Positions 8,061 to 36,060 of a DNA stretch of 55,049 nucleotides are shown here, piece by piece. Below the pieces are notes generated by a model that worked only from the letters and a program-made list of their open reading frames with translations, did not search any database and was not told the DNA's origin. Each line of letters begins with the position of its first letter. Within the stretch, counting starts at the first letter, position 1. The stretch is from Solirubrobacterales bacterium (GTDB lineage Bacteria; Actinomycetota; Thermoleophilia; Solirubrobacterales; 70-9): NCBI GenBank assembly GCA_020438425.1, contig JAGQUQ010000006.1:1-55049 (forward strand). Direction: 5' to 3'. A program made the position numbers and the translations under genes.

Positions 8061-8163
8061 TTCCCGGTCGATGGGACTGCGAGTAATTACAGACTACATT
8101 GGGCCGGTTACGAGGTTCGGAATGGTTCTCGGAGAACCTTTTCCATCGAGCTCCTGCGCAGGG

Positions 8164-8346
8164 TCAGCCGGCGAAAACGACCACGGCCACAACTGCGACG
8201 ATCAACAGGTCGGCGATGATCACCCACTTGATCCAGGGCGGCATGCGGTCCCGGGTCGGCGCCGACTCGAGGCCTGAATCGACCGAGGACTCGGCCTGTT
8301 CGAACTCCTCGAATTCCCGCTTCAGATCTTCGGAGGATTCAGCCAT
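8164..8346 (-). CDS. Small tail-anchored membrane protein
   Basis: 60 residues: an acidic, helical N-terminal half (SSEDLKREFEEFEQAESSVD) and one C-terminal membrane segment (WVIIADLLIVAVVAVVVFAG) running to the last residue. This is a tail-anchored topology with the soluble part probably in the cytosol. The start lies 6 bp after the stop of the DUF4333 gene, so the two are likely co-transcribed. Function unknown. Confidence 0.6.
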   Translation of the reverse strand: MAESSEDLKREFEEFEQAESSVDSGLESAPTRDRMPPWIKWVIIADLLIVAVVAVVVFAG

Positions 8347-8352
8347 CCGGAC

Positions 8353-8721
8353 CTACTTGGGAGCGTTGGCCCCGTTCGGCACGTCCAGGGTCTTCAGGTC
8401 ACCGACCTGGATGTTGAACTTTGCGTTGCCGCCTTCGTCGACCGAGGTGATGGTGATCGTCATGTCATATGTCCCGCCCTGCTGGTCTTCCAGCGAGCAG
8501 ATTTCGCGTTCCCCGACTTCCGCTTTCAGGTCCTCGGGGCAGCTGACCGAAGCCGGCTTCTGACCGAACTCCTTGGTCAGAGAGTTCGAGGCCTCGGTCT
8601 CGAGGTTGGACGCGCTGATCGTGTCATCGCCGGTCGACACTTCAGCCTCACAGGCAGTGAGGGCCAAAGCCGATCCGAGAACGGCGACCAGAGCTAGAAA
8701 GCGACGGGGGGACGAGTTCAT
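8353..8721 (-). CDS. DUF4333 lipoprotein
   Basis: 122 residues; ATG at 8721 is preceded by GGGTGAG. The lipoprotein leader has an LTAC lipobox (LALTACEAEV). The mature part carries the DUF4333 pattern: a helix with SLTKEFGQKPASVSCPEDLK, then ICSLEDQQGGTYDMTITI and TSVDEGGNAKFNIQV, with two conserved cysteines expected to pair. The family is common in actinobacterial envelopes and has no established function. Followed by the tail-anchored peptide gene. Confidence 0.85.
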   Translation of the reverse strand: MNSSPRRFLALVAVLGSALALTACEAEVSTGDDTISASNLETEASNSLTKEFGQKPASVSCPEDLKAEVGEREICSLEDQQGGTYDMTITITSVDEGGNAKFNIQVGDLKTLDVPNGANAPK

Positions 8722-8801
8722 GCGCTCACCCTACCGCCCTTACAGGCGGTCGAAAGGCCGCCATTTCGGCCAGTATCCACCTCGGGGTTTAGTGTCAGAG
8801 C

Positions 8802-9554
8802 ATGTTCGGGGAATCCGAAGGAACGGTCAGGCTGCTCGATGCCGAGCCTTCGCTTGCCCGAGGGATCGAGCGCCGGATCCTCGACCAGGCCCGCGAAAGC
8901 CTGATCGCCGAAGTCAGGCGGGTCGAACCCGGTGAATGGGAAGAGGCCCGCAAAGTCCCTTCAAGCCCGCTATTTCTCGGCTACCTGATTCTCGAAGGCG
9001 CCTTCACGAGAGAAATCATGGTTTCCGGCCGACCCTCGCTGGAGTTACTCGGACCCGGCGACCTGATTCGCCCCTGGGTGGTGCCGCGGGCACTGGAGGT
9101 GATGCATGTGACCGACGAGTGGAGCCTGATCTCCACCGGCCACGTCGCGATCATCAACGAAGACTTTCACCAGCAGGCCCAGGAATTCCCGAGCATCCTC
9201 ACGGTCCTGATGGACCGGGTCGTTGCCCGGGCCCGCTGGCTTGGGTTTCAGGTGGCGCTATCGCAATTGACCCGGATAGACCACCGTCTGCTGCTCACCT
9301 TTCGTTATGTGGCGGAACGATGGGGCGTTGAAAGCCCGCGGGGCGTACGCATCCCGATCCGCCTGAGCCACCGCAATCTGGCCGCGATGATCGGGGCTCG
9401 AAGGCCGAAAGTCTCGACCGCACTCACCGCCCTCAGCGAGAAGGGCCTGATCGAGCAGGACAAGGACGGAAGCTGGACATTCTTCGCCGCCGATATCGAT
9501 CCGATGGCCGTCCTGGCTGACATCGACGACATTTCCGAAAGGATCGGTGCCTGA
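8802..9554 (+). CDS. Crp/Fnr family transcriptional regulator
   Basis: 250 residues. The N-terminal half is a cupin-like effector domain (GYLILEGAFTREIMVSGRPS, LELLGPGDLIRPW). A dimerisation helix spans roughly 130-170, and the C-terminal winged helix has the HTH_Crp pattern IRLSHRNLAAMIGARRPKVSTALTALSEKGLIEQ. The cAMP-contact RxS of true CRP is not evident, and there are no cysteines for an iron-sulfur cluster, so the ligand is unknown. Divergent from the DUF4333 gene (80 bp between starts), it may regulate that pair; this is inferred from position only. Confidence 0.88.
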   Translation: MFGESEGTVRLLDAEPSLARGIERRILDQARESLIAEVRRVEPGEWEEARKVPSSPLFLGYLILEGAFTREIMVSGRPSLELLGPGDLIRPWVVPRALEVMHVTDEWSLISTGHVAIINEDFHQQAQEFPSILTVLMDRVVARARWLGFQVALSQLTRIDHRLLLTFRYVAERWGVESPRGVRIPIRLSHRNLAAMIGARRPKVSTALTALSEKGLIEQDKDGSWTFFAADIDPMAVLADIDDISERIGA

Positions 9555-9603
9555 TCGGGCAATCCGCTCGTTTGCCGGTTCCCGGGGCGGGTAGATTTCG
9601 GGC

Positions 9604-9960
9604 ATGATCACAGGCCTCGATTTCATCGGCATCCCATCCACCGACGCGGACCGATCGCGGACGTTCTATCTGGAGACTCTCGGTCTGAAACAGGACGAGA
9701 ACTCCGAGTACGAGTTCTGGGTGGATCAAACCTGCTTCGGGATCTGGGAGCCGGCCAGGCAGGGCATGGAGTTCGCGCCGCAAAAGAACGGCCATCTCGC
9801 CTTGCGGGTCGATGACGTCGAAGCGGCCAGGGCCGAACTCGAGGCCAAGGGCGTCAAGTTCGCCGGCGATACCTTCGACACCGGGGTCTGCTTCATGGCA
9901 CTTTTCACCGACCCGGACGGCAACGATCTGATGCTTCACCAGCGCTACGCCCCTCACTGA
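9604..9960 (+). CDS. VOC (glyoxalase) family protein
   Basis: 118 residues starting MITGLDFIGIPSTDADRSRTFY, with C-terminal VCFMALFTDPDGNDLMLHQRY. The pattern matches the two-motif VOC fold, and a possible metal-ligand His is seen in the last strand (LMLHQRY). It follows the Crp/Fnr gene by 49 bp on the same strand and may be co-transcribed. It is distinct in sequence from the VOC protein at 415. Substrate unknown. Confidence 0.82.
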   Translation: MITGLDFIGIPSTDADRSRTFYLETLGLKQDENSEYEFWVDQTCFGIWEPARQGMEFAPQKNGHLALRVDDVEAARAELEAKGVKFAGDTFDTGVCFMALFTDPDGNDLMLHQRYAPH

Positions 9961-10264
9961 GAGCACTTTTTCCGCGAAATTCAGTCCGCCCGCGCAACAC
10001 TTGCGTACAGTGATGTCTCTTTTGTGAAATCCTCTGTTTCCCGCTTGTTGCGCCAAATAGTGGCCTCTGAAACCTAGCGGCAGAGCCACTTTTTGAACGA
10101 TCCTCGGAAACTTAAGACTTTCTTTAGGTTTCGGATACTGGACAGTTCACCATCCCGTGCCTACGGTTTCCCCGAACGATCAGGCACCACTGCACGACTC
10201 TCCCGATCGAGAGTTCCAGGGCAGCACTCCGGAGGGGCACTCCTCCAGAAAGCGAGGCTGAACG
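9961..10264. other. Intergenic leader before the sigma-factor gene
   Basis: The only gap of about 300 bp in the window. It is less GC-rich than its surroundings. It holds small hairpins, for example ACTCTC (10198-10203 region) pairing with GAGAGT, and a GGAG/CTCC hairpin just before the ribosome-binding site. The region reads TTGTGAAAT and ACTTTTTGAACG with no clear -35/-10 pair. I looked for a sigma-B type GTTT-N13..17-GGGTA promoter and found none. No convincing short gene was seen. Confidence 0.5.
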
Positions 10265-11059
10265 ATGGCAAGCAAGGTTCTAGACAGGGTGGAAAAGGAA
10301 ACTCCGATGGGCTCCTCGATCATGGGGCTGGCCGACGAAGCCGAGCTCTGGGCCCGGCGGGACAGCGACCCTCAGGCACGGGAAGAGCTGGTCAACCGGT
10401 ACCTGGCCTTCGCCAAGAGCGTGGCAGTGCGTTACCGCAGTCAGGCCGAGTCGCTGGATGACCTGATTCAGGTGGCCAGCCTGGGGCTGGTCAACGCGGT
10501 CAACCGCTTCGACCCCGAACGCGGGATCCCGTTCATCGCCTTCGCCTCACCCACGATCACCGGGGAACTCAAGCGGCACTTCCGGGACCGGACCTCGGCC
10601 ATGCGCCTTCCCCGCAGCCTGTACGACAGGATCGGCCAGATCGACATCGTGGTCTCCGACCTGACCAGCCGGCTCAACCGCGAACCCTCAAGCGCCGAGA
10701 TCGCAGCCGAGATGCGATGCCCCGAGGAAGAGATCATCGAGGCCTTCGAGGCTGGCGGCAACCGTCATCCGATCTCGCTGGATCAGGGTCCTTCATCGCC
10801 CGACGACGGCTCGACTTCCCCGTCCGAATGGCTCGGACGGGATGACTCCCGCTTCGAGACCGCCGAACACCGGATCATGCTCAAGGCCGCGATGACGGAT
10901 CTGAGCCGCGAGGAACGCATGGTGATCAGCCTGCGGTTCCGGGACGAACTGACCCAGTCGGAGATTGCCGAAAAGATCGGTCACTCGCAGATGCATGTCT
11001 CCCGCATGCTCCGCCGGATCCTCGACCGGATGGGTGACCGCCTGCCGGCCGCAGCCTGA
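10265..11059 (+). CDS. RNA polymerase sigma factor, SigB/SigF/SigG type
   Basis: 264 residues. Region 2 is at about 35-105 (ELVNRYLAFAKSVAVRYR, LDDLIQVASLGLVNAVNRFD, FIAFASPTITGELKRHFRD), region 3 around 110-165 (RLPRSLYDRIGQI, EPSSAEIAAEM), and region 4 at about 205-258 (LSREERMVISLRFRDELTQS, EIAEKIGHSQMHVSRMLRRI). This is the stress/sporulation-type group 3 layout. ATG at 10265 is used; an in-frame ATG lies at 10310. No anti-sigma or anti-anti-sigma gene is adjacent, so control must be encoded elsewhere. A bidirectional hairpin ends the gene. Confidence 0.9.
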   Translation: MASKVLDRVEKETPMGSSIMGLADEAELWARRDSDPQAREELVNRYLAFAKSVAVRYRSQAESLDDLIQVASLGLVNAVNRFDPERGIPFIAFASPTITGELKRHFRDRTSAMRLPRSLYDRIGQIDIVVSDLTSRLNREPSSAEIAAEMRCPEEEIIEAFEAGGNRHPISLDQGPSSPDDGSTSPSEWLGRDDSRFETAEHRIMLKAAMTDLSREERMVISLRFRDELTQSEIAEKIGHSQMHVSRMLRRILDRMGDRLPAAA

Positions 11060-11096
11060 CTTCAGGACTTCCCTCCCGCTCCCCCAAGAAGGACAC

Positions 11097-11131
11097 GGAC
11101 CGGACCGGCACCCCCCTTGCCGGTTCGGTCC
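11097..11131. terminator. Bidirectional terminator hairpin between convergent genes
   Basis: A 14-bp stem: GGACCGGACCGGCA (11097-11110) with TGCCGGTTCGGTCC (11118-11131), containing one G.T pair and a 7-base loop. It sits between the sigma-factor stop (11059) and the oxidoreductase stop (11135), which converge. No T-run follows on either strand, so it is a strong hairpin rather than a textbook intrinsic terminator. Confidence 0.6.
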
Positions 11132-11134
11132 TGT

Positions 11135-12238
11135 TCAACCGGAATCGAAGATCGCCTCGCCGAGACGATCCTCGGGACGGAAGCCGGCTTCGACCGACCC
11201 GGCATCAACCGACCCGGCCAGGACGGTTCCCAGCGCCGGAGCGAGTTTGAACAGATTGTGACCGGCGATGAAGTAGGCATCGCCGGCCTGCCAGATCGCG
11301 AGGCCGTCCGAGGCCCAGGGCAGCTCGGTGATCCAGCGCTGAAAGGAAACGGCCCCGCTCATCTCGAGACCGGGCATTGCCCGCTCGACGTAGGCAGACG
11401 TGCGCCTGGTCAGTTCGCCCAGCTGGCCGGAGTCACCTGCCGGATCGATCTCGGCGCTGAGGGCGAGTCCCACCGCGTACCCGGCGTTGCCGTCGACCGG
11501 AGAACCGTAGGCAGCCGCCTCGCCAAAGGCTCCCGACGAATCCTGCAGGCAGGCGAGTCTGGCCGGCAGCGGGGAGCGGGAGGAGAGCGGCAAAGTGAGG
11601 CGCATGTGAGCCTGTGGAGACGAAGGAATCTCGATCCCGGCCGAACCCGCCAGCCTGGCTGTCCCGGTGCCGGCGGCGACAACGGCGGCATCAAAGACCC
11701 GGGGGCCGAAGTTGCTGAGCACATTGACTCCGCCACCTTCCCGCGGTGTGACTGACTCGACTTTCTCCGGCACGAGATTCAGCCCCGCGGCGGCAATCAG
11801 GTTGGCGATCGTCAGCCCTGACCGGATCGCACCGGCGGCATCGTCAATCAGCGCCGGACCGTCGAAGTCGGCCAGGATCGGCAACGCCTCCCTGACTTCG
11901 ATCCGGCTCAGTTCGCGCACCTCCGAGTCGGGATCATCGGCGTATCTGGAGAGTCTGGCCACCCCTTCGTCGCCGATCACCATCGCCCCGTCATCGGTGA
12001 TCAACCGGACTCCGAACTCCTGCTCCCATTCCCGCCAGCCCCGACGCGACAGTACCGCGAGCTCGAACTGCCGCGGATCGTCGTGGGCGTGCCGGAAGAT
12101 CCGCGACTCCCCCGCCGACTGTCCGCCCCCGGGTGCGCCCTGTTCGAAGACGAGGCAGGCGTAGCCAAGGCGTTCGAGTGCCCAGGCGGTGGCCAGGCCG
12201 ACCACTCCCGCTCCGATTACAGCGACCCTGGTTGCCAT
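11135..12238 (-). CDS. FAD-dependent oxidoreductase, DAO / monomeric sarcosine oxidase-like
   Basis: 367 residues. The N-terminal Rossmann motif VAVIGAGVVGLATAWALE binds FAD ADP. It is followed by SAGESRIFRHAHDD, matching the SxxxSRxxR block of monomeric sarcosine and N-methyl-tryptophan oxidases. The C-terminal FIAGHNLFKLAPALG is the family's second FAD contact (G-H-x-F-K). Members oxidise N-methyl or secondary amino acids, releasing H2O2. Covalent flavinylation usually uses a Cys near the C-terminus; none is seen here, since the block reads GHNLFKLAP. Substrate unknown. Monocistronic, convergent with the sigma gene. Confidence 0.85.
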   Translation of the reverse strand: MATRVAVIGAGVVGLATAWALERLGYACLVFEQGAPGGGQSAGESRIFRHAHDDPRQFELAVLSRRGWREWEQEFGVRLITDDGAMVIGDEGVARLSRYADDPDSEVRELSRIEVREALPILADFDGPALIDDAAGAIRSGLTIANLIAAAGLNLVPEKVESVTPREGGGVNVLSNFGPRVFDAAVVAAGTGTARLAGSAGIEIPSSPQAHMRLTLPLSSRSPLPARLACLQDSSGAFGEAAAYGSPVDGNAGYAVGLALSAEIDPAGDSGQLGELTRRTSAYVERAMPGLEMSGAVSFQRWITELPWASDGLAIWQAGDAYFIAGHNLFKLAPALGTVLAGSVDAGSVEAGFRPEDRLGEAIFDSG

Positions 12239-24916: not shown

Positions 24917-25378
24917 TCAGCCTGCGCTGGTGGCAGACCTTCCCCAGGCCCATTCAAGGACCACCTTCAGTGAACCGTCCGGTGCCGTGTCAACCGTGAT
25001 CGGCACCGGCATCGCCCTTCGCATCTCGCTGATCAGATCACCGCCGTCCTCGGTTTCGAGCACGAAGGTGGCCTGGTCATTGGATCGCTCGACCGAGACG
25101 ACCTTGCGGACCGACTGAAGCCCGCGCAAAGCGGTTTCGGCCACCGCAGCCATCGCAAGCTCCGGCAACGGTGAAACGCTGACACCGACCTCTCCCCTTG
25201 ACGCGGACACCGGGGGCACGTCGGGAGCGCTTGCGGGCCGGGGCGCAAGGGCTTCGACCGCGGACACCAGTTCCTGGACCCGATCGGCCAGGGCCTGGAC
25301 CTCGAGACTGACCCGGCCTACTGAAGCACGCAGGTCATCGATGACGGCTGGATCCGTCTGTTCGGATTCTGAGCCCAT
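24917..25378 (-). CDS. Coiled-coil protein with a C-terminal domain shared with the protein at 34326
   Basis: 153 residues. The N-terminal coiled coil (DDLRASVGRVSLEVQALADR, VQELVSAVEAL) is followed by a Pro/Ala linker and a ~75-residue domain from VSPLPELAMAAVAETALRGL through LISEMRRAMPVPITV. The same pattern (PL-x-[ED]L, E-x-AL, LIS-x-[ML]RR-x-x-P) closes the protein at 34326-34859, so the two are homologous. The predicted alternation helix-strand-strand-helix-strand suggests a ferredoxin-like fold. First gene of the six-gene APC/RCK operon, 11 bp before the first permease. Function unknown. Confidence 0.65.
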   Translation of the reverse strand: MGSESEQTDPAVIDDLRASVGRVSLEVQALADRVQELVSAVEALAPRPASAPDVPPVSASRGEVGVSVSPLPELAMAAVAETALRGLQSVRKVVSVERSNDQATFVLETEDGGDLISEMRRAMPVPITVDTAPDGSLKVVLEWAWGRSATSAG

Positions 25379-27178: not shown

Positions 27179-28609
27179 CTACTCGCCACTGGCCGAATCG
27201 GCCTGCTGCTCGGTTCCGACTTCGGGAGCGGCACCGGACTGGTAGAAGATGACATCCGGCTCGGAGGTCCCGTTCAGCCAGGCGAGCTCGGTCGCCTGAG
27301 TCTCATCCGGGAGCGGCACCAGGGCCACGTTCTCGGCCAGTTCCTGGGAGCGGGAGAGGCTCTGGACCAGGAATTCATTGATGTCCTGATCCTTCATGTT
27401 CTTGTAGTTGATGGTCAGCAGCAGCTGACGGGCCAGCGGGTAGGTGGCGTTGGTGACCGTCGCCTGCGAGGGGAAGATGCATTCCGGCCTTGCGAAATCG
27501 TTCGAGGCGCTCACTTCCATCGGTCGCAACTGCTCTTCGAAGGCTTCGTAGTAGGAAAAGCGGAAGAGTCCGAGCGTGCCGCGCATCTCGGCCAGACGGC
27601 GCAGGGCCGCCCGGTTCTGGTTCACGTAGCGGCGGGCTGCGGGCAGCGACTTCTCGAGGTTCTCGAGGTTCTTCTCGGCCTTGGCCAGCTTGGCGCGGTC
27701 GCGGGCCTGGTCTTCCGGCGGACGTTCGTCGGCGATGCCCTTGGCCACCTCTGCCCTGGCGTCACGAACGGCCCGGCGGTTCTCCGCCAGGGAGTCGAGA
27801 ATGCCCTGGTAGACCTGCCTCGAGCGCTCGAACTGGGCCGCAGCGCGGAAGTCCCGGTTACTGCCGACCACCGCGCGCCTCACACCGGCGTCGTCGGGGT
27901 AAGCCTGATAGTCGCTGCGGAAGGAGAGCATGGTCGGCTCGGGATCGCCGAGCACGTACTGGCCGAAGAAGCTGAAGAGATTCGAGTCCTCGTCGGGGCC
28001 GGCGACCTTCATCCGCGGCTCGTTGAGGTCACCGCCAAGGTCATGCCCGTAACCGACCTGGCTCCAGCTGTTGATGTCCGAACCGGCCCGGAAGATGTTC
28101 CGGACTTCTTCGAAGCTGAGGCAGTCGGTTCCGACATCGGTTTCGTTCTTGATTGCCAGAACGACGGCATCCGAGGCAATCTGGAACTGAACCGGCTGGA
28201 TCCCGTTGGCGATGCACTTGCGGTACTCGGCTTCTGAAATCGGCCGGGCCGAATCGACTATGTCGGCGTTGCCGGCGCAGAACTCCTCGAAAGCCTGGTT
28301 CTCTCCCTGCTCTTCGACGGTGATTGTGGCGGTGCCGCCGGCACCGTTATACGCCTTGACCAGACTCGGGGTGAGAGATCCCTGGGCCTTGCCGACGACG
28401 CGGATCGTGCCGGCTTCGCGCGGAGTGGGCTTGGTGTTCTGTTTCGATGACTTGCCCGACTCCGGCGGTACGAAGATTGCCTCGGAGCCTGACGCACCGG
28501 CCGATTCGGGGGCTTCGTCGGGATTCACGCCACAGCCGGTTACGAGCAAGGCAATGATCGCCGCTCCGCAGGCGAGTCCGGCACCCTTCTTCACGAAAAC
28601 ACGGCTCAC
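27179..28609 (-). CDS. PstS-like substrate-binding lipoprotein with a coiled-coil insertion
   Basis: 476 residues from GTG at 28609. Lipobox VTGC is at about 23-26. The phosphate-binding-protein fold is seen in GTIRVVGKAQGSLTPSLVKAY, CAGNADIVDSARPISEAEYR, DAVVLAIKN, FEEVRNIFRAGSDINSWSQV and TYPLARQLLLTINYKN. Residues ~255-341 are a charged helical hairpin (EVAKGIADERPPEDQARDRA, KNLENLEKSLPAARRYVNQN) inserted just before the GTLGLFRFSYYEA strand, where PstS normally continues directly. No pst transporter genes are nearby. Its place as last gene of the glycan operon suggests a surface-assembly or ligand-sensing role rather than phosphate import. Confidence 0.8.
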   Translation of the reverse strand: MSRVFVKKGAGLACGAAIIALLVTGCGVNPDEAPESAGASGSEAIFVPPESGKSSKQNTKPTPREAGTIRVVGKAQGSLTPSLVKAYNGAGGTATITVEEQGENQAFEEFCAGNADIVDSARPISEAEYRKCIANGIQPVQFQIASDAVVLAIKNETDVGTDCLSFEEVRNIFRAGSDINSWSQVGYGHDLGGDLNEPRMKVAGPDEDSNLFSFFGQYVLGDPEPTMLSFRSDYQAYPDDAGVRRAVVGSNRDFRAAAQFERSRQVYQGILDSLAENRRAVRDARAEVAKGIADERPPEDQARDRAKLAKAEKNLENLEKSLPAARRYVNQNRAALRRLAEMRGTLGLFRFSYYEAFEEQLRPMEVSASNDFARPECIFPSQATVTNATYPLARQLLLTINYKNMKDQDINEFLVQSLSRSQELAENVALVPLPDETQATELAWLNGTSEPDVIFYQSGAAPEVGTEQQADSASGE

Positions 28610-29871
28610 AGTCCACCTCCGACGGTATTGCCAGCGGCACTGCCGGACTGGACCTGGGCGTTGTCGCCACCGGTCTCCGGACCTTCGAGTCCGACCTGGC
28701 TGAGCGGCGGATCCTTGTAGATCTGGGGCAGTGAAATCACTTCGAAGTCATCGAGATTGAGCCAGTCGAGTTCGTCCCCCCGAATCAGCTTGGGTGAGGT
28801 ACCAAGCGGCGCGTAAAGGCTGGGCACAGCGGCCCGGTCGACCACGATCGCCCCGTAGGTCCGGAGTGCGGTGAGGATCGCGTCAGCGGAGCGGCGGCGC
28901 TGCCCCTTCAGGCTGCGGATCTTCTTCTCGTTGATGGTCACATCGGCACGCAGGCGGATCCTCGCTCCGGCCGGGAGCGACTTGCGGTCGCCGACTCCGT
29001 CGGTGACCGAGGCGGGCTGGACGAAATTGCGGCGTGCCAGGCCGGGAATCGAGATCGCCAGGGCATGGCTGATCTCGCCCCGCTCCAGCTCTTCCGGGCC
29101 GACCACTCCGGCAAACAGCGGCAGCCCCGAGCCACGCGCACCAACCGCCCGCTCCGGGTCGATGCTGACCGGATTGCTGAAGCCGGGTCCATCAAGGGTC
29201 CAGGCCTTGCCGAACTGGTAGGAGATCGTGCCGTCGCCCTCGCGGCGGGCCCGCCAGAAGTCGTATCCCATGCCGTTCTCACGGTCGATCACGCTGAGCC
29301 AGCCGTCATAGCGCGGGTCGGGAGTGGTGTTGGCGGGAATGTTCAGGCTTCCCGGTACCTTGGGGTCGGCCGAACCGCACTTGGACTGGCGGCAGACCAG
29401 CTTCGTTGTGACCGAATCATTGGTATTGGCCGCGACGATCAGCGGAGCCCAGACCTGGGAGTTGATGAAGATGCCGTCGTCGACGATCTTGCGAGTGAAG
29501 GTGACCACGCCTTCCCGGTCCGGCACCTCGTTCACGGCGCGTCGCTGGGTGGCCAGTTCGAGCATCCGGTCGGAGTTGTCAGCCACCGGCAGGCCCTCGG
29601 CGGTCGTATTCCAGGGGCTGTCGGCCGAGAAAAGCCGGCCTTCGGCGACCGGATCGGTGCCGGCGGTCACGGCCGAGCCGGTCCCCGGTTCTGTTTCTCC
29701 GGTGGTTTCATTGGCCGTTGCCACCGTGTCTCCGGTGGCGCCGGTCTCCCCCGTCGTCGATTTGGCCTGGTTGTCACCCGAGTTGCCGTTGTCGGAATCG
29801 TTCGAACCGCAGGCGGCAACCAGCAGGCCGAGCATGGCCGTGAAGGCGACAACGAGCAACCAGCGCTTCAT
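28606..29871 (-). CDS. Secreted lipoprotein of the glycan operon, function unknown
   Basis: About 421 residues from ATG at 29871 (MKRWLLVVAF); a start at 29886 is possible. The lipobox is VAAC. A Ser/Thr/Gly/Asp-rich linker of ~60 residues is followed by a globular domain beginning GRLFSADSPWNTTAEGLPVA, with VCRQSKCGSADPKVPGSLNI, RYDGWLSVIDRENGMGYDFW, GLPLFAGVVGPEELERGEIS and ILTALRTYGAIVVDRA. The SPWN start and the DRENGMGYDFW block recur in actinobacterial secreted proteins near polysaccharide genes, as far as I recall. A glycan-binding or glycan-modifying role is inferred. It overlaps the next gene by GTGA. Confidence 0.65.
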   Translation of the reverse strand: MKRWLLVVAFTAMLGLLVAACGSNDSDNGNSGDNQAKSTTGETGATGDTVATANETTGETEPGTGSAVTAGTDPVAEGRLFSADSPWNTTAEGLPVADNSDRMLELATQRRAVNEVPDREGVVTFTRKIVDDGIFINSQVWAPLIVAANTNDSVTTKLVCRQSKCGSADPKVPGSLNIPANTTPDPRYDGWLSVIDRENGMGYDFWRARREGDGTISYQFGKAWTLDGPGFSNPVSIDPERAVGARGSGLPLFAGVVGPEELERGEISHALAISIPGLARRNFVQPASVTDGVGDRKSLPAGARIRLRADVTINEKKIRSLKGQRRRSADAILTALRTYGAIVVDRAAVPSLYAPLGTSPKLIRGDELDWLNLDDFEVISLPQIYKDPPLSQVGLEGPETGGDNAQVQSGSAAGNTVGGGL

Positions 29872-29885
29872 CCCGCCCTCAGGCA

Positions 29886-31844
29886 CTACTCGCCCTCCAG
29901 AGTCGGGGCCGATGAGCTGCCGTCATTCGGCTCCACCGTGCTGCCGCTATTCGAAGGTGTGGGTGAAACCGGGGTGACGTCGGTCTCCGATTGAGACGGA
30001 GTGGTCAGGTCGGGCCCGTTCGGGTTGAGCGGAGCCGTCGGAGTGACCGGGTTCGGGCTGGTCCGGGGCTGGTTCGATTCCTGCTCATCGCCTTCATCGG
30101 GTGGCTTGGTCTCGGAGATCTCAACCAGGACGTAACGGTCGGTGCGGAAGATCGGCTGGAGCCCGGCTTCACCGCCCTCGACGGCGGTCGGCCACTTCTT
30201 GGCGATCTGATCGCCGGCCCGGCTGGTGGTGATCAGCATGTAGCGAATCTGATCGTCCGGGTTTTCTGCGTTCCAGGTCCACGGATCGTCAATCGCCGAC
30301 TGCCAGTCGTCTTCGCCGGCGTCCACCCGGTCAAAGAAGTTCTGGGGGCGGCCGGAAGTGATCATCACTCCATAGTTGAAGTTCTGATCGACGGCAATTG
30401 ACCTTTCGTTCTGCGGAATTTCGTTGTTCACGTATCTGGCCATGGCCAGCTCCGGATCGATTCCGACGGTGTAACCACCGATGGAGCTGGTTCCTTCCTG
30501 ACTGTCACGGGTGTCAACCCATCGGGTGAACGCCTCTGCCTGGTTCTGAAACCGGTAGTCCTGCATGGCATTCCACGAAAGCGGGATCGCGACAAGCAGT
30601 CCGATCACCGCGATAACCGAGGCAACCACTCCCCATCCATCACGGCCAAACCACGCCACAGCGGCGAGGGCGAAAACTGCGAACACGATTCCGTAAGCGA
30701 GGTCGAAGAGGTTTGCCTGATCCGCAATCACGGCTCTTCCCACCGGTGTTGCGGCAATGACTATGCCTACGGCAAGAAGTGCCCAGGCAGTCGAGTCCCC
30801 CTTGACAAAGCCGCCGACGACCAGAAGAACCAGAGCGACGAAGGCAAGAGGGGCAACGCCGAGGGTGACCTCGAACAGATCGCCCATGCTTCCCCAGAAG
30901 TCAGCCTGAATTGCCTGCAAAGCCCCGGTCGTGTTGACCTGGATGACCCCGTCCTGAAGAGATACCCAGGCAAACGGATCACCCAGGAGCACCCAGTTCA
31001 TCAGACACCAGAACAACAGGGCGTAAACGAACGGGGTGAGAAAGAGAAGCAACGTCGAGCGGATCTTCAACCCGTCATGAATCTTGGTTGCACTCAGAAT
31101 CAGGAACCCGATGACGAACCCGAGCCCGATCACCATGTACCCGTAGTCGACCATGACGGCCAGTCCCACCGCCAGACCAGCCCCGGCAAGATAGCGGGTC
31201 TGCTCGGTGGCGGACCAGGAAATCATCGATGAAAGTGCCACACCCAACATCACCAGACCCAGAATCTCGGTCGATCCGTTACAGGCGTAGTAGACGAACA
31301 TCGGGTTGAGGCCGAAAAGAACCAGCACCACAATGCGGAACGCGAGGTTGAAATCACAATTGCGCATCATGGTGTTCAGCGAAGCCATCAACAAGCCGGC
31401 GCTGAACGCGCTTAGAACCGGTATGGCAACAAGCGAAGTCGCAAGCGGCTTGACCAGTGTCAGCGGCATGTACATGATCGACACGAAGGTGCCCGCATCC
31501 AGACCGACCGCCGCAAGACGCGGCGGATCGTTCCAGAAGACCATGTAGGCATCGTTCAGCTTGTTGAGGGCGACGAAGTTGACGATCCGTCCATCGGTCA
31601 GGAGGAAATAGCCGATCACGCCATACACCAGCGCGAAGAGGGCGAAGACAATCGTGCTTTCCCAGGTTGCCCTCGGGGCTTCGGGGCTGAAAGGACGGGG
31701 CTCGGGCGGAACCTCGTTGATGTAGGAGGCGATCTCGGGGTCTACATAGGTCCGACGAACCTGCCGGGTCCTCACCTCTTCCCTGACTGCGGCCGTGCCG
31801 CCGTCCTCGATGACCGGGTTCACGTCTACACGTTCGTCGGCCAT
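29886..31844 (-). CDS. Polytopic membrane protein, GT-C glycosyltransferase-like
   Basis: 652 residues. A ~65-residue cytosolic N-terminus (RRTYVDPEIASYINEVPPEP) precedes about ten to twelve TM segments (70-440) and an extracytoplasmic domain (440-560: FTRWVDTRDSQEGTSSIGGY, QNEKSIAVDQ-like block, RYMLITTSRAGDQIAKKW). The last ~80 residues are a disordered Pro/Asn/Thr tail. The arrangement of a long first loop with acidic residues (LNDAYMVFWNDPPRL) resembles GT-C-fold transferases using lipid-linked sugars, but the catalytic Asp is not certain. Its start overlaps the MshEN-GT2 stop by one base (TGATG), implying the two work together. Confidence 0.7.
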   Translation of the reverse strand: MADERVDVNPVIEDGGTAAVREEVRTRQVRRTYVDPEIASYINEVPPEPRPFSPEAPRATWESTIVFALFALVYGVIGYFLLTDGRIVNFVALNKLNDAYMVFWNDPPRLAAVGLDAGTFVSIMYMPLTLVKPLATSLVAIPVLSAFSAGLLMASLNTMMRNCDFNLAFRIVVLVLFGLNPMFVYYACNGSTEILGLVMLGVALSSMISWSATEQTRYLAGAGLAVGLAVMVDYGYMVIGLGFVIGFLILSATKIHDGLKIRSTLLLFLTPFVYALLFWCLMNWVLLGDPFAWVSLQDGVIQVNTTGALQAIQADFWGSMGDLFEVTLGVAPLAFVALVLLVVGGFVKGDSTAWALLAVGIVIAATPVGRAVIADQANLFDLAYGIVFAVFALAAVAWFGRDGWGVVASVIAVIGLLVAIPLSWNAMQDYRFQNQAEAFTRWVDTRDSQEGTSSIGGYTVGIDPELAMARYVNNEIPQNERSIAVDQNFNYGVMITSGRPQNFFDRVDAGEDDWQSAIDDPWTWNAENPDDQIRYMLITTSRAGDQIAKKWPTAVEGGEAGLQPIFRTDRYVLVEISETKPPDEGDEQESNQPRTSPNPVTPTAPLNPNGPDLTTPSQSETDVTPVSPTPSNSGSTVEPNDGSSSAPTLEGE

Positions 31845-34063
31845 CAGGCGGAACCCGCTCTCTTCGGAGTCGAAGAATGGGCGTGTTCGGCACCGCCGCC
31901 GAGGTCAAGCCCGTGCTCGGTCTTCTCCCAGTAGAAGGGATTCGTAATCAGTTGGCCAAAGCCCTTCCAGGCGGCGACAGACATCAATCCCCAGTAAAAG
32001 GGCAAGAACAGCGCGTAGGGGGCGAGGCCGTAATCACCGCGCCGGACCGAGGCGGCGAGCCCCAGATAGACGAAGACAAAATTGCCCAGAAAGAGCTGAG
32101 CCGCGGCAAGGAAGTACACCCACCCCGGAAAGAAATCCTGGATGATCCCGAGCTGGGTCAACGCGAACGCGGTGGTCAGGAACCAGAAGATCGGGTTGAT
32201 CAGGAACATGAAAGTTCCCCCGATCAGCAACTGGAACGAAAGAAAGCCCTTGAGGCCCACGTTGGAGAGGAAACGGAACGGGTTCCGCATGTAGACCAGC
32301 CAGGTCTGGAGGTAGCCCTTGATCCAGCGGGACCGCTGACGGATCCAGTTGGGGATGCTGGTATTCGCCTCCTCGTAAGTGGTCGAATCCATCATCGTGG
32401 TGCGATAACCGGCCTGGTGGAGCCGCACGCCGAGGTCGGCGTCCTCGGTCACGTTGTAGGGATCCCAGCCGCCCACTTCGACCAGTTCGTCACGCTTGAT
32501 GTGGTTTGAGGTGCCGCCCAGCGGGATCGGATCGCGGCGGGCGTCGAGCCCGGGCAGGACCAGGTCGAAGAGCATCGAGTACTCGATCGAGAACCAGCGG
32601 GTGAGGATGTTGGTCTGCTGGTTGAAGAAGTTGAGCTTCGACTGGATGCAGACGATCGAATCGTCCATGTTGTCGAACATGTGGACGGCCTTCTTCAACT
32701 GGAGCGGGTCCGGCCGGTCTTCGGCGTCATAGATGACGACATACTCGCCCTTGGCGCCGAGCAGACCGAAGTTGCATGCCTTTGGCTTGGTCTGCGGCTG
32801 CGAAGGAGGCACGACGATCGCATTGAAGTGAGGCGGAAGATCCAGATCCAGGATCGCCTGGATCGTTTCCTCATCGTCTTCCTCGCAGAGCAGGCGAACG
32901 TCGAGCTTGGTCTTCGGGTAGTCGAGCGACTCGATGCCGGCGACCAGGTACGGGATAACCGCGGCCTCGCGGTAGACCGGGACCAGCACGGTGTAGACCG
33001 GCAGGCTGCGTTCGTCCATCGCGGCGAGAGTTTCTTCGTCGGTGGGCACCATGTACCGGTGGCCGAGAGCCGCGTATCCGGCGATCAGCTTGTAGGCCGA
33101 GGTCAGGGTGTAGAAGATCGCGAGGATCGCGAACACGACTACCATTGTTGAAACCGGCTTCCAGATCAGGAATACGAGGAAGACCACCGCCAGCAGAATC
33201 AGGAAGAACTTCTGCCCTCCGCTCAAGACCTGATGGGCCGAACTGTCGGGGAACCGTTCCCGCAGACCAAGGGTCGCCGTCTCGGTGTAGCGCTCCTGGT
33301 TGATCTGGCGCTGAAGGCGGGAGATGTCGTTACCGGTCGCCAGGAACTGCTGGACCTTGCGCCCGGTGTAACTCTCTACTTCAGCTTCACCCTCGACCAG
33401 ACGGTCAGCCACGGCGAGGTAGATGCTCTCACCGTCGATCGCGATCGGGACGCAGTGGAGCCGGTGACACATCTCGTCCGGAAGCACGTCCCGGGGAGCC
33501 CGATCGGCGTCGTAATCGCTGAGATCCACGGTCGGCAGGTCCATCTGCTCGGAGAGAACCCGCAGCAGCTCGGTTTCCTCGAGCGCTCCACCATGAACCA
33601 GGACTTCACCGATCCGGCTTCCGGTGCGGTTCTGCTCGGCCACAGCGTCGGCAAGCTGTTCTTCGGTGACCAGTCCGCGGCTGGCGAGACTCTCACCCAG
33701 GCGGGGCGGAACGGCAAGACCGTGCTTGAGCAGGTCGTCGGCCGAGAATTCTGTTCCTTCCGGCCGGCCGTTGCCGGCAAAGAGCCGGTCGATCGCCAGG
33801 TCGAGTTCGGTCTGGTCGGCGAAGAGCCACCGGGTGTCGTATCCGGTCTGTTCACGAACCGCGCGATCGGCTGCCGGGTTGAAGGAAACCGGCCCGGCCA
33901 TCGTGATCAGCCCGCGGTCGAACTCGATCGGAACGATGTGGTACCGACGGCAGATCTCTACCGGCAGAAGGTGAGCCACCGCCGAGCTGAGCGTGACCAT
34001 GCGTTCGCTGACTCCGCTTGTGGAATCACGAACGAGCAACCTCTGGGCGACTGCTGTTGCCAT
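31844..34063 (-). CDS. MshEN-domain / family-2 glycosyltransferase fusion, c-di-GMP-responsive glycan synthase
   Basis: 739 residues. Residues ~30-95 resemble the C-terminal half of a GspE-N domain. Residues 121-144 (RLGESLASRG..EQ) and 150-173 (RIGEVLVHGG..EQ) are two 24-residue RLGxx..G..L..Q motifs five residues apart, the exact c-di-GMP-binding layout of MshEN. Two TM helices (~286-325) precede a GT2 domain with VLVPVYREAAVI, DAED (446-449), TED (539-541) and QRSRW (576-580), then four or so TM helices (~595-700). This is the BcsA/NfrB-like processive synthase plan with sensor and catalyst in one chain. A diguanylate cyclase gene is at 34942. The polymer made is unknown. Confidence 0.88.
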   Translation of the reverse strand: MATAVAQRLLVRDSTSGVSERMVTLSSAVAHLLPVEICRRYHIVPIEFDRGLITMAGPVSFNPAADRAVREQTGYDTRWLFADQTELDLAIDRLFAGNGRPEGTEFSADDLLKHGLAVPPRLGESLASRGLVTEEQLADAVAEQNRTGSRIGEVLVHGGALEETELLRVLSEQMDLPTVDLSDYDADRAPRDVLPDEMCHRLHCVPIAIDGESIYLAVADRLVEGEAEVESYTGRKVQQFLATGNDISRLQRQINQERYTETATLGLRERFPDSSAHQVLSGGQKFFLILLAVVFLVFLIWKPVSTMVVVFAILAIFYTLTSAYKLIAGYAALGHRYMVPTDEETLAAMDERSLPVYTVLVPVYREAAVIPYLVAGIESLDYPKTKLDVRLLCEEDDEETIQAILDLDLPPHFNAIVVPPSQPQTKPKACNFGLLGAKGEYVVIYDAEDRPDPLQLKKAVHMFDNMDDSIVCIQSKLNFFNQQTNILTRWFSIEYSMLFDLVLPGLDARRDPIPLGGTSNHIKRDELVEVGGWDPYNVTEDADLGVRLHQAGYRTTMMDSTTYEEANTSIPNWIRQRSRWIKGYLQTWLVYMRNPFRFLSNVGLKGFLSFQLLIGGTFMFLINPIFWFLTTAFALTQLGIIQDFFPGWVYFLAAAQLFLGNFVFVYLGLAASVRRGDYGLAPYALFLPFYWGLMSVAAWKGFGQLITNPFYWEKTEHGLDLGGGAEHAHSSTPKRAGSA

Positions 34064-34329
34064 CAGGACTTGAACTCCCTCACTTCAGTCGTGGTCTCGA
34101 CGACCTCGACTGTCTCCTGCCTGTCAACTCTGGCATTGCCGTTGCCATTGCCGTTGCCATTGCCGTTGCCGTTAGCGTCTCCCCGGCGGCGATCGCTGAC
34201 CAGCATCACGACTATGCCAGCCAGGAAAATGAAGAACGGAACGATCAGGAAGAACCCGAACATGATCGCGAATGCGATCAGAATGCCGACCACGAAGATC
34301 AGCGCGCCGAATACTCCTCCTCCGTTCAC
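34063..34329 (-). CDS. Small membrane protein with an Asn-Gly repeat
   Basis: 88 residues: two adjoining hydrophobic segments (VFGALIFVVGILIAFAIMFG and FLIVPFFIFLAGIVVMLV), then DRRRGDA, a low-complexity run of about six Gly-Asn dipeptides and an acidic tail ending EVVETTTEVREFKS. The GN run is encoded by an alternating GGCAAC/GGCAAT six-base repeat (about 34135-34175), so its length could vary by slippage. It overlaps the gene upstream by four bases and the synthase downstream by one. Probably an accessory membrane subunit of the glycan synthase; no family recognised. Confidence 0.65.
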   Translation of the reverse strand: MNGGGVFGALIFVVGILIAFAIMFGFFLIVPFFIFLAGIVVMLVSDRRRGDANGNGNGNGNGNGNARVDRQETVEVVETTTEVREFKS

Positions 34330-34859
34330 AGACCCGTGGGAGCGGCCACGCCGCTCTCGCGTCCGCCCATAGGTTGGGCCAGCGCGATCGTCACCGAGTC
34401 ACTTGAAGACTCGGTGACGTCAAATGCCACCGGCAGCTTGCGCCGGAGAGAGGAAATCAGTGAAACCCCTTCCCCGACCTTCGTGTCGATGGTTGCGGAA
34501 TCGCCGCGAAGTTCGCGAAGCGATGCCTCTTCCACCCCGTCAGTATTTGCCAGCGCGTCCTCGACGACGCGGGCAAGGCTGAGATCGTGAAGCGGACGGA
34601 CGATCACTCTGACGTCGCCACCGGTAGGCAGCTCGAAGTTCTCGTGCGTCGTCACAGTGTCCGAAACCGGAATGCCGGAACTGTTGACCGGGATTCCGGG
34701 CAGGGAGGCACCAGGCAACGTCGAAGCCTGAAAACCGGAACCCGGGTCCGAAAAGCTGCTGCCTCCGCTTCGAGCCTCCAGGGCATCGAGACGGGCGGAC
34801 AACTCCTCCCTCAAACTCCGAATTTCCTTGAGAATTTCTTTTGAACGGTCTTTTGCCAC
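34326..34859 (-). CDS. Coiled-coil protein with C-terminal domain shared with the protein at 24917
   Basis: 177 residues from GTG at 34859, chosen because GGGAG lies four bases before it. A longer frame to 35006 would overlap the divergent cyclase gene. The N-terminal coiled coil is DRSKEILKEIRSLREELSAR; a Ser/Gly/Pro linker follows. A ~75-residue domain runs VRPLHDLSLARVVEDALANT, ATIDTKVGEGVSLISSLRRK and LPVAFDV, homologous to the C-terminus of the protein at 24917-25378. First gene of the glycan operon. The domain is probably a small alpha/beta fold. A regulatory or scaffolding role is a guess from its position. Confidence 0.65.
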   Translation of the reverse strand: MAKDRSKEILKEIRSLREELSARLDALEARSGGSSFSDPGSGFQASTLPGASLPGIPVNSSGIPVSDTVTTHENFELPTGGDVRVIVRPLHDLSLARVVEDALANTDGVEEASLRELRGDSATIDTKVGEGVSLISSLRRKLPVAFDVTESSSDSVTIALAQPMGGRESGVAAPTGL

Positions 34860-34866
34860 CAGGCTC

Positions 34867-34879
34867 CCGATATTATCGG
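34867..34879. promoter_or_regulatory. Palindrome at the ribosome-binding site of the glycan operon
   Basis: CCGAT-ATT-ATCGG is a perfect 5-bp inverted repeat. On the minus strand its last bases run into the GGGAG ribosome-binding site of the GTG start at 34859. It may be an operator or a small hairpin that controls translation of the first operon gene. Confidence 0.4.
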
Positions 34880-34922
34880 CAAGTGCAGGATCTTCGAACG
34901 CTGAATGGTAAGCGCCTGCCGC

Positions 34923-34937
34923 AGTGAGTGGCTCACT
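34923..34937. promoter_or_regulatory. Palindrome between the diguanylate cyclase and the glycan operon
   Basis: AGTGAG-TGG-CTCACT is a perfect 6-bp inverted repeat with a 3-base centre. It is followed by CTATAG, a weak -10-like sequence for the cyclase gene starting at 34942. Its position between divergent genes suits a shared operator. Confidence 0.45.
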
Positions 34938-34941
34938 ATAG

Positions 34942-36060
34942 GTGAGGAACGGGAGAACCGTCAAGTACGAAAACCTGAGAATCCGGCCGTTCGGCATGCA
35001 CCCCACCCACCGGGGCTACCGGGACGTGACTCACTACCGGAAGAATCAGATCCGTTACGGGTTGGCGTTCGTGGCGATCACCGCTATCTGCTTCGCGGCA
35101 ACCCTGATCTCGTCCCCGGACACCGACTGGGCGCTTTACGCGGCAGGATGGGCGGTCGCCCTGGCCAGCGTCGGGCTCGCCCTCACCCATCCGGCCCTCT
35201 GGCTCGCGGCTCCCTTCGGCGCCCTGGGAGGAGCGATCCTGGTCCGCGCCGGCACCGACGGACTCGATGAAGGAATCGGCCCGTTGCTGCTGATCCCGGT
35301 TCTGGCGGTGGCCGTGTACGGATCCCGAAAGGCTCTGGTCGCGGTGATCGTCTGCGTGGTGGCGGCGGTCGTGGTCGCGCAGATAGCGACTGCCGAGGGC
35401 GAGGTCGGGCTGAATCCGGTCTGGAGGCAGGATCTTGTTCTGGCGGTCATGGCGACCGTGCTCGGAGTCGTAATCCAGGACCTGGTCACCCGCATGCGTC
35501 GCGAACGAAACCTTGCCGAGGAGCGGGGCCGGATCATCGAGGAGCTCGCCCTGACCGATCCCCTGACCGGAATTGACAATCGCCGCGGCTGGGAACGGGC
35601 GATCCAGCGATCGGTGGGCCAGGCCCGCCGCCACTCGCAGCCGCTCAGCCTGGCGATGCTTGATCTGGACCACTTCAAGAAGTACAACGACGCCCACGGC
35701 CATCAGGCCGGGGATGACTTCCTCCGCAGGATCGCCCTGAACTGGGAGGAGATGACCCGCATCGAAGACCACATCGCCCGCTACGGCGGCGAGGAGTTCG
35801 TGGTCACCCTCCCCAACACCGACCTCGAAGGCGCCAGGGTGATCGTCGACCGGCTCCGCGCCTCCCTGCCGCAGGAGCCGGAAGGGGATTCCGGCCGGCC
35901 GATCACCTGCTCGGCCGGAATTGCCGAGTGGAACGGCTCGGAAACGGTTCGCGAACTGGTCGGCCGGGCCGATCAGGCCCTGTACGCCGCGAAGGATGCC
36001 GGCCGGGACCGGACCGTGGTCCTGGAAACGCCGGAATCGCGGGCCGGATTCGCCGGCTGA
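34942..36060 (+). CDS. Membrane-bound diguanylate cyclase (GGDEF)
   Basis: 372 residues from GTG at 34942; ATG at 34996 is an alternative, and neither has a clear ribosome-binding site. About six TM helices lie within residues 36-182. A short helix (LVTRMRRERNLAEERGRIIE) connects to a GGDEF domain: LTDPLTGIDNRRGWE, MLDLDHFKKYNDAHGHQAGD, active site YGGEEF (G282-F286). R273-I-E-D276 five residues before it is an intact I-site for product inhibition. No EAL or HD-GYP domain. It should make c-di-GMP at the membrane. Divergent from the glycan operon, whose synthase carries the c-di-GMP-binding MshEN motif. Confidence 0.92.
   Translation: MRNGRTVKYENLRIRPFGMHPTHRGYRDVTHYRKNQIRYGLAFVAITAICFAATLISSPDTDWALYAAGWAVALASVGLALTHPALWLAAPFGALGGAILVRAGTDGLDEGIGPLLLIPVLAVAVYGSRKALVAVIVCVVAAVVVAQIATAEGEVGLNPVWRQDLVLAVMATVLGVVIQDLVTRMRRERNLAEERGRIIEELALTDPLTGIDNRRGWERAIQRSVGQARRHSQPLSLAMLDLDHFKKYNDAHGHQAGDDFLRRIALNWEEMTRIEDHIARYGGEEFVVTLPNTDLEGARVIVDRLRASLPQEPEGDSGRPITCSAGIAEWNGSETVRELVGRADQALYAAKDAGRDRTVVLETPESRAGFAG

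What the first reader, a model, noticed from the sequence alone, without database searches (positions are those of the whole stretch)
33545..33703. Exact tandem MshEN c-di-GMP motif on the N-terminal side of a GT2 synthase
Residues 121-144 and 150-173 both follow R-[LI]-G-x-x-L..G..L..L-x-x-Q over 24 residues, with a 5-residue spacer, as in the MshE N-domain. In NfrB of E. coli the MshEN module is, as I recall, C-terminal. Here it precedes the transmembrane and catalytic part, preceded by a half GspE-N-like unit (30-95). This suggests an independent domain fusion and another way to couple ligand binding to the gate.
Basis: partly seen in the sequence, partly recalled or inferred. Interest (0 to 1): 0.7.

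Follow-up and report, generated by a model that had tools for sequence, protein, structure and literature searches.

The report
c-di-GMP sensor fused to sugar-polymer synthase
This actinobacterial gene encodes a membrane sugar-polymer enzyme with a sensor for the bacterial messenger c-di-GMP at its front end; the layout proves widespread and separate in origin from the well-known E. coli enzyme NfrB, and many relatives keep the sensor's fold but have lost its binding site.

Summary
Residues 121-173 of a 739-aa protein (window 31844-34063, minus strand) form a full MshEN c-di-GMP module: two 24-residue motifs, 5-residue spacer, NCBIfam 56.6 bits (cut-off 38), a predicted four-helix bundle matching MshE-c-di-GMP (5htl). 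It precedes the membrane and GT2 parts, and a second GspE-N-like alpha/beta unit lies before it. "Exact" is slightly overstated.

The arrangement is not unique: 45 of 48 aligned relatives from several phyla carry MshEN N-terminally and form one GT2 clade; a joint origin with NfrB is rejected, so the fusion is independent. The gene heads a translationally coupled operon conserved in actinobacteria; a GT-C-like gene follows it in other phyla too. In this genus a GGDEF gene with intact signature motifs usually lies just upstream, and no PilZ was found.

New here: the helical bundle is conserved even where the pocket is degenerate (Nocardioides), and all ten genomes without GGDEF have degenerate pockets.

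Best explanation: a c-di-GMP-gated GT2 glycan synthase, a new architectural variant of a known kind. Binding, polymer and gating are inferred, not shown.

The parts
31844..34063 (-). MshEN-GT2 membrane glycosyltransferase, 739 aa
33773..33994 (-). extra MshEN_C-like (GspE-N) alpha/beta unit, residues ~24-97, with no MshEN_N bundle of its own
   Evidence: PF05157 41.2 bits; alpha/beta fold in model
33632..33703 (-). c-di-GMP motif I, residues 121-144
33545..33616 (-). c-di-GMP motif II, residues 150-173
33293..33541 (-). MshEN_C subdomain, residues 175-257
   Evidence: PF05157 53.2 bits
33065..33220 (-). two transmembrane helices, residues 282-333
   Evidence: AF2 secondary structure
32264..33013 (-). 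GT2 catalytic domain, residues ~351-600: D397, DAED 446-449, TED 539-541, QRSRW 576-580
   Evidence: Pfam; catalytic residues kept in 48/48
29886..31844 (-). GT-C/PMT_2-like integral membrane protein, 1-nt overlap with the GT2 gene
   Evidence: weak PMT_2; neighbour conserved in several phyla
28606..29886 (-). secreted lipoprotein of unknown family, conserved in the operon
   Evidence: no Pfam; AF2 model without PDB match
27179..28609 (-). PstS-like substrate-binding lipoprotein, conserved in the operon
   Evidence: PF12849, TIGR02136
25488..27140 (-). secreted protein of unknown family, conserved in the operon
   Evidence: no Pfam
34063..34329 (-). small membrane protein (88 aa) overlapping the GT2 start
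34326..35006 (-). ORF at the head of the operon; orthologues suggest a start near residue 50 (VAKDRSKEIL)
34942..36060 (+). divergent membrane-linked GGDEF gene, with GGEEF and RxxD I-site (RIEDHIARYGGEEF)
   Evidence: PF00990 142.9 bits; sequence

Best explanation
A c-di-GMP-gated inner-membrane GT2 glycan synthase. The cytosolic N-terminus carries a degenerate extra GspE-N unit and then a complete MshEN module. Binding of one c-di-GMP across the two motifs (inferred) would reorient MshEN_N against MshEN_C. This would be passed through the interface helices (244-270) and TM1-2 (282-333) to the BcsA/hyaluronan-synthase-like catalytic domain and channel (inferred), switching on synthesis and export of a surface glycan. 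The coupled GT-C enzyme and the exported lipoproteins would then modify or bind that glycan (inferred). In this genus the divergent GGDEF protein is the likely local source of the signal (inferred from position). Shown: module, fold prediction, gene order, phylogeny, conservation. Not shown: binding, activation, product.
For: MshEN model hits and motifs. Four helices 122-128, 134-147, 151-157, 163-174 and an alpha/beta MshEN_C in a confident model, pLDDT 86.7, pTM 0.79. Foldseek match to 5htl_B, MshE with c-di-GMP, TM 0.77 on target, 2.9 A, 30% identity. BcsA and HAS matches for the synthase part, with catalytic D, DAED, TED, QxxRW in 48/48. Contact residues R121, Q144, R150, Q173 kept in 9, 10, 10 and 9 of 10 genus orthologues, and MshEN_N 84% identical against 64-65% in flanking units. 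GGDEF 3-6 per searched genus genome, EAL 1-3, no PilZ in 10 genomes. GGDEF gene beside the operon in 8 of 9 genus loci long enough to show it. All 10 GGDEF-less genomes have degenerate pockets, while intact pockets occur only with GGDEF. Precedent: NfrB binds c-di-GMP through MshEN (Kd 1 uM) and needs it for function (PMC8669469).
Against: The bundle is equally over-conserved in Nocardioides, where the pocket is degenerate (80% against 67%), so its conservation alone does not prove ligand binding; the motif positions are not significantly more invariant than the rest of the bundle (p 0.31). The pocket-GGDEF association rests on few independent events: 5 independent pairs, not significant. One genus member (G015) has Q173T and another (G098) R121Q. 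No evidence on the sugar. The model gives no inter-domain error, so coupling is not tested.
Confidence: 0.72

Rival explanations
1. The MshEN bundle is an old structural or coupling part of this GT2 family; c-di-GMP binding is a dispensable add-on, or another ligand is sensed in many members.
For: 45 of 48 members keep an MshEN domain though most lack the contact residues. Nocardioides keep an alternative set (Q121, Y/H144, P150, M/L/I173), and the bundle is as conserved as in the window genus. L126 is invariant in 48/48. GGDEF-less genomes keep the module.
Against: In the window genus the contact residues, GGDEF and EAL genes and a neighbouring GGDEF gene all persist. For the window's own protein the canonical pocket is best explained by c-di-GMP.
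Confidence: 0.3
2. The GT2 domain is not a polymer synthase but makes a lipid-linked sugar used as donor by the adjacent GT-C enzyme; c-di-GMP would control glycosylation rather than polymer export.
For: A GT-C/PMT_2-like gene directly follows or lies near the GT2 gene in several phyla, and a related GT2 is fused to a similar GT-C part in L025 (weak score). The GT2 model also matches the Pyrobaculum mannosyltransferase PcManGT, TM 0.68 on target.
Against: TED and QxxRW, marks of processive GT2s, are kept in 48/48 at the positions tested; the best fold matches are cellulose and hyaluronan synthases.
Confidence: 0.25
3. The protein is an NfrB relative in which the MshEN domain moved from the C- to the N-terminus.
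For: MshEN parts of both proteins are similar (NfrB models match residues 118-261).
Against: NfrB's GT2 scores only 23.9 bits against the family model, below BcsA (71.3) and PgaC (30.7). One clade of all MshEN-bearing GT2s is rejected, dlnL 189 (long-branch caveat). Further GT2 relatives of NfrB in the sample lack MshEN.
Confidence: 0.03

Closest known systems
NfrB of E. coli (GT2 with C-terminal MshEN)
   Same: GT2 synthase and MshEN in one membrane protein; DAED, TED and QxxRW; a diguanylate cyclase as partner (DgcJ there, adjacent GGDEF gene here)
   Different: MshEN N-terminal with an extra GspE-N unit; GT2 from a distant branch; neighbours are GT-C, two lipoproteins and a secreted protein instead of NfrA/YbcH; window motifs are closer to consensus than NfrB's own (PLG...R in motif I)
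MshE / PilB / PilF N-terminal MshEN (GSPII) domains
   Same: tandem 24-residue motifs, 5-residue spacer, four-helix bundle plus alpha/beta subdomain; serial units of which some are degenerate, as in Thermus PilF (PMC11731258)
   Different: attached to TM and GT2, not to a traffic ATPase
BcsA cellulose synthase
   Same: processive GT2 core with membrane channel; c-di-GMP control by a cytosolic receptor domain
   Different: PilZ at the C-terminus there; MshEN at the N-terminus here, and no PilZ found in 10 genus genomes

Membership tests
MshEN c-di-GMP receptor domain | two 24-residue motifs with a 5-residue spacer | tested here: met
   four conservative deviations from the strict consensus
MshEN c-di-GMP receptor domain | four-helix bundle plus MshEN_C fold | tested here: met
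   AF2 model, Foldseek to 5htl
MshEN c-di-GMP receptor domain | contact R, G and Q of both motifs present and kept in close orthologues | tested here: met
   8 of 10 genus members keep all four R/Q residues
MshEN c-di-GMP receptor domain | binds c-di-GMP | not testable with these tools
   needs ITC, DRaCALA or MST
processive membrane GT2 synthase (BcsA/HAS/PgaC type) | D, DxD-like, TED and QxxRW with TM helices on both sides | tested here: met
   the DxD position reads DAED, as in NfrB
processive membrane GT2 synthase (BcsA/HAS/PgaC type) | makes and exports a polymer | not testable with these tools
   no product data
NfrB family | MshEN C-terminal to GT2 | tested here: not met
NfrB family | GT2 groups with NfrB | tested here: not met
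NfrB family | nfrA/ybcH-like partner genes | tested here: inconclusive
   neighbours are GT-C, lipoproteins and PstS-like; no direct NfrA search was run, and presence elsewhere in the genome is unknown
BcsA cellulose synthase | PilZ domain | tested here: not met
   none in the protein or in 10 genus genomes

The most novel reading that the evidence does not exclude
In this GT2 family the MshEN bundle is a general gating module whose ligand site has been repeatedly lost or re-specified. Window-type members sense c-di-GMP, while Nocardioides-type members, some in genomes without any detected GGDEF gene, keep a conserved but altered pocket that responds to another ligand or none.
Probability: 0.3. 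Interest if true: 0.6.

Novelty: new variant of a known kind. Interest (0 to 1): 0.45.

Why it matters
MshEN-glycosyltransferase fusions are mentioned in the literature, but in the papers held only NfrB, with the opposite order, was found characterised. A widespread N-terminal version gives Solirubrobacterales, where no PilZ was found in the ten genomes searched, a candidate c-di-GMP effector. Its natural pocket-lost orthologues offer a ready comparison of how a receptor domain controls a GT2 channel and whether it can work without c-di-GMP.

Tried and rejected
A single NfrB-type origin was tested by tree and AU test and rejected. A statistical link between pocket integrity and GGDEF presence looked strong by Fisher test (p 7e-4 at 4 or more of 6; p 6e-4 at 3 or more of 4 with Arg ignored; p 0.17 when all 6 are demanded), but on the tree only 5 independent pairs remain, so it is suggestive only. 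Arg loss was not taken as proof of lost binding, since PilF GSPII-B binds without Arg (PMC11731258) and NfrB binds with P and R in motif I. Stronger conservation of MshEN_N in the window genus was first read as selection for binding; the Nocardioides control removed that argument. A fold for the operon's lipoprotein was sought and gave no PDB match. Papers on N-terminal MshEN-GT2 proteins: none found among those held. The first ORF extraction of relatives ignored strand and was redone.

Full report
What is there. The finding lies in a 739-aa ORF on the minus strand (31844-34063). Codons 121-173 are exactly window 33545-33703. Both motifs and the 5-residue spacer are as described. NCBIfam's MshE-related c-di-GMP model covers 121-173 at 56.6 bits (cut-off 38), and Pfam's MshEN profile matches twice, around residues 24-97 and 175-257. 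By composition, even one such motif is expected 0.0008 times in six frames of the window; two occur, both here. The word 'exact' is slightly strong: four hydrophobic positions deviate from the strict consensus of PMC5013675, but none of the named contact residues (R, G, Q) does.

Structure. An AlphaFold2 model from 48 family sequences (pLDDT 86.7, pTM 0.79) shows an alpha/beta unit (20-94), a four-helix bundle (122-174), a second alpha/beta unit (196-254), interface helices (244-270), two TM helices (282-333), the GT2 domain (~355-590) and further TM helices to 707. Foldseek finds cellulose and hyaluronan synthases for the synthase part, and the V. cholerae MshE-c-di-GMP complex (5htl_B, TM 0.77 on target, 2.9 A, 30% identity) for the sensor. 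The catalytic residues tested (D397, D446, D449, E540, D541, Q576, R579, W580) are kept in 48 of 48 sequences.

How widespread. A genome-collection scan gave 80 loci. Of 48 aligned members from Actinomycetota, Bacillota, Pseudomonadota, Bacteroidota, Chloroflexota, Kryptonia, Atribacterota and deltaproteobacterial groups, 45 have an MshEN domain, N-terminal to GT2. In the GT2 tree these form one group (94/90). NfrB and its C-terminal-MshEN relatives lie far away, and holding all MshEN-bearing GT2s together costs 189 log-likelihood units. The long branches call for caution, but profile scores agree: BcsA 71.3, PgaC 30.7, NfrB 23.9 bits.

Operon. The gene overlaps by one base the next gene, a GT-C/PMT_2-like membrane protein, followed by a lipoprotein, a PstS-like lipoprotein and a secreted protein. 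This order is conserved in Solirubrobacterales, Nocardioides, Aeromicrobium and Jatrophihabitans. A GT-C gene is adjacent or close in Paenibacillus, Sporolactobacillus, Kryptonia, deltaproteobacterial, Mucilaginibacter and, weakly, Erythrobacteraceae loci. A divergent GGDEF gene lies upstream in 8 of 9 genus loci where it could be seen; the window's copy has GGEEF and an I-site. The exception, G015, has PAS-like and EAL fragments nearby and also carries Q173T. The ten genus genomes have EAL genes and no PilZ; those of them searched for GGDEF have 3-6.

Pocket conservation. In ten genus orthologues R121, Q144, R150 and Q173 are kept in 9, 10, 10 and 9. Across the family they are often lost: Patulibacter has L/M..Q and R..L, Nocardioides Q..Y/H and P..M/L/I, Mucilaginibacter none. 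All ten genomes without GGDEF genes have degenerate pockets, and none with an intact pocket lacks GGDEF, but shared ancestry leaves too few independent events for significance, and some of these genomes are drafts. In Nocardioides the bundle is still 80% identical against 67% for its neighbours, nearly the same excess as in the window genus (83% against 65-69%). The bundle therefore probably has a conserved role beyond c-di-GMP binding.

Mechanism. Best reading: c-di-GMP binds MshEN, changes its subdomain arrangement, and through the following helices and TM1-2 switches the GT2 synthase on, as proposed for NfrB (PMC8669469, PMC8669472). The sign of the effect, the sugar and the role of the GT-C partner are not known. 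A lipid-linked-sugar role for GT2 feeding GT-C is a live rival.

Known or new. MshEN fused to glycosyltransferases is mentioned in PMC5013675, and NfrB is the characterised case. No held paper found describes the N-terminal arrangement, though literature in subscription journals could not be searched. This is a new architectural variant of a known kind.

Noticed in passing
window 28606-29886 (-): Lipoprotein conserved across the actinobacterial operon with many invariant residues (for example SPWN, C165/C170, GxGLPL, H274), no Pfam family and no PDB fold match; possibly an unrecognised glycan-active family.
   Followed up: partly
L025 (G079), residues ~590-901: A MshEN-free GT2 relative is fused to a C-terminal GT-C-like membrane part similar to the gene next to the window's GT2.
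   Followed up: partly
L075 and L077 (Paenibacillus), residues ~98-181: Three successive MshEN-type motifs at 29- and 28-residue steps before the GT2, suggesting a doubled bundle.
   Followed up: no
window 24917-25378 (-) and 34326-35006 (-): The genes flanking the operon seem to share a domain: the G015 orthologue of the latter matches the former at 31% identity.
   Followed up: no
L128 (G015) 9665-10012 and nearby: Where relatives have the divergent GGDEF gene, this genome has PAS-like and EAL fragments and an H+-pyrophosphatase-like gene, together with Q173T in MshEN.
   Followed up: partly
L094 (Pelagerythrobacter), ORF 7875-11231: MshEN-GT2 relative in an unusually long 1118-aa frame that continues past the GT2.
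   Followed up: no
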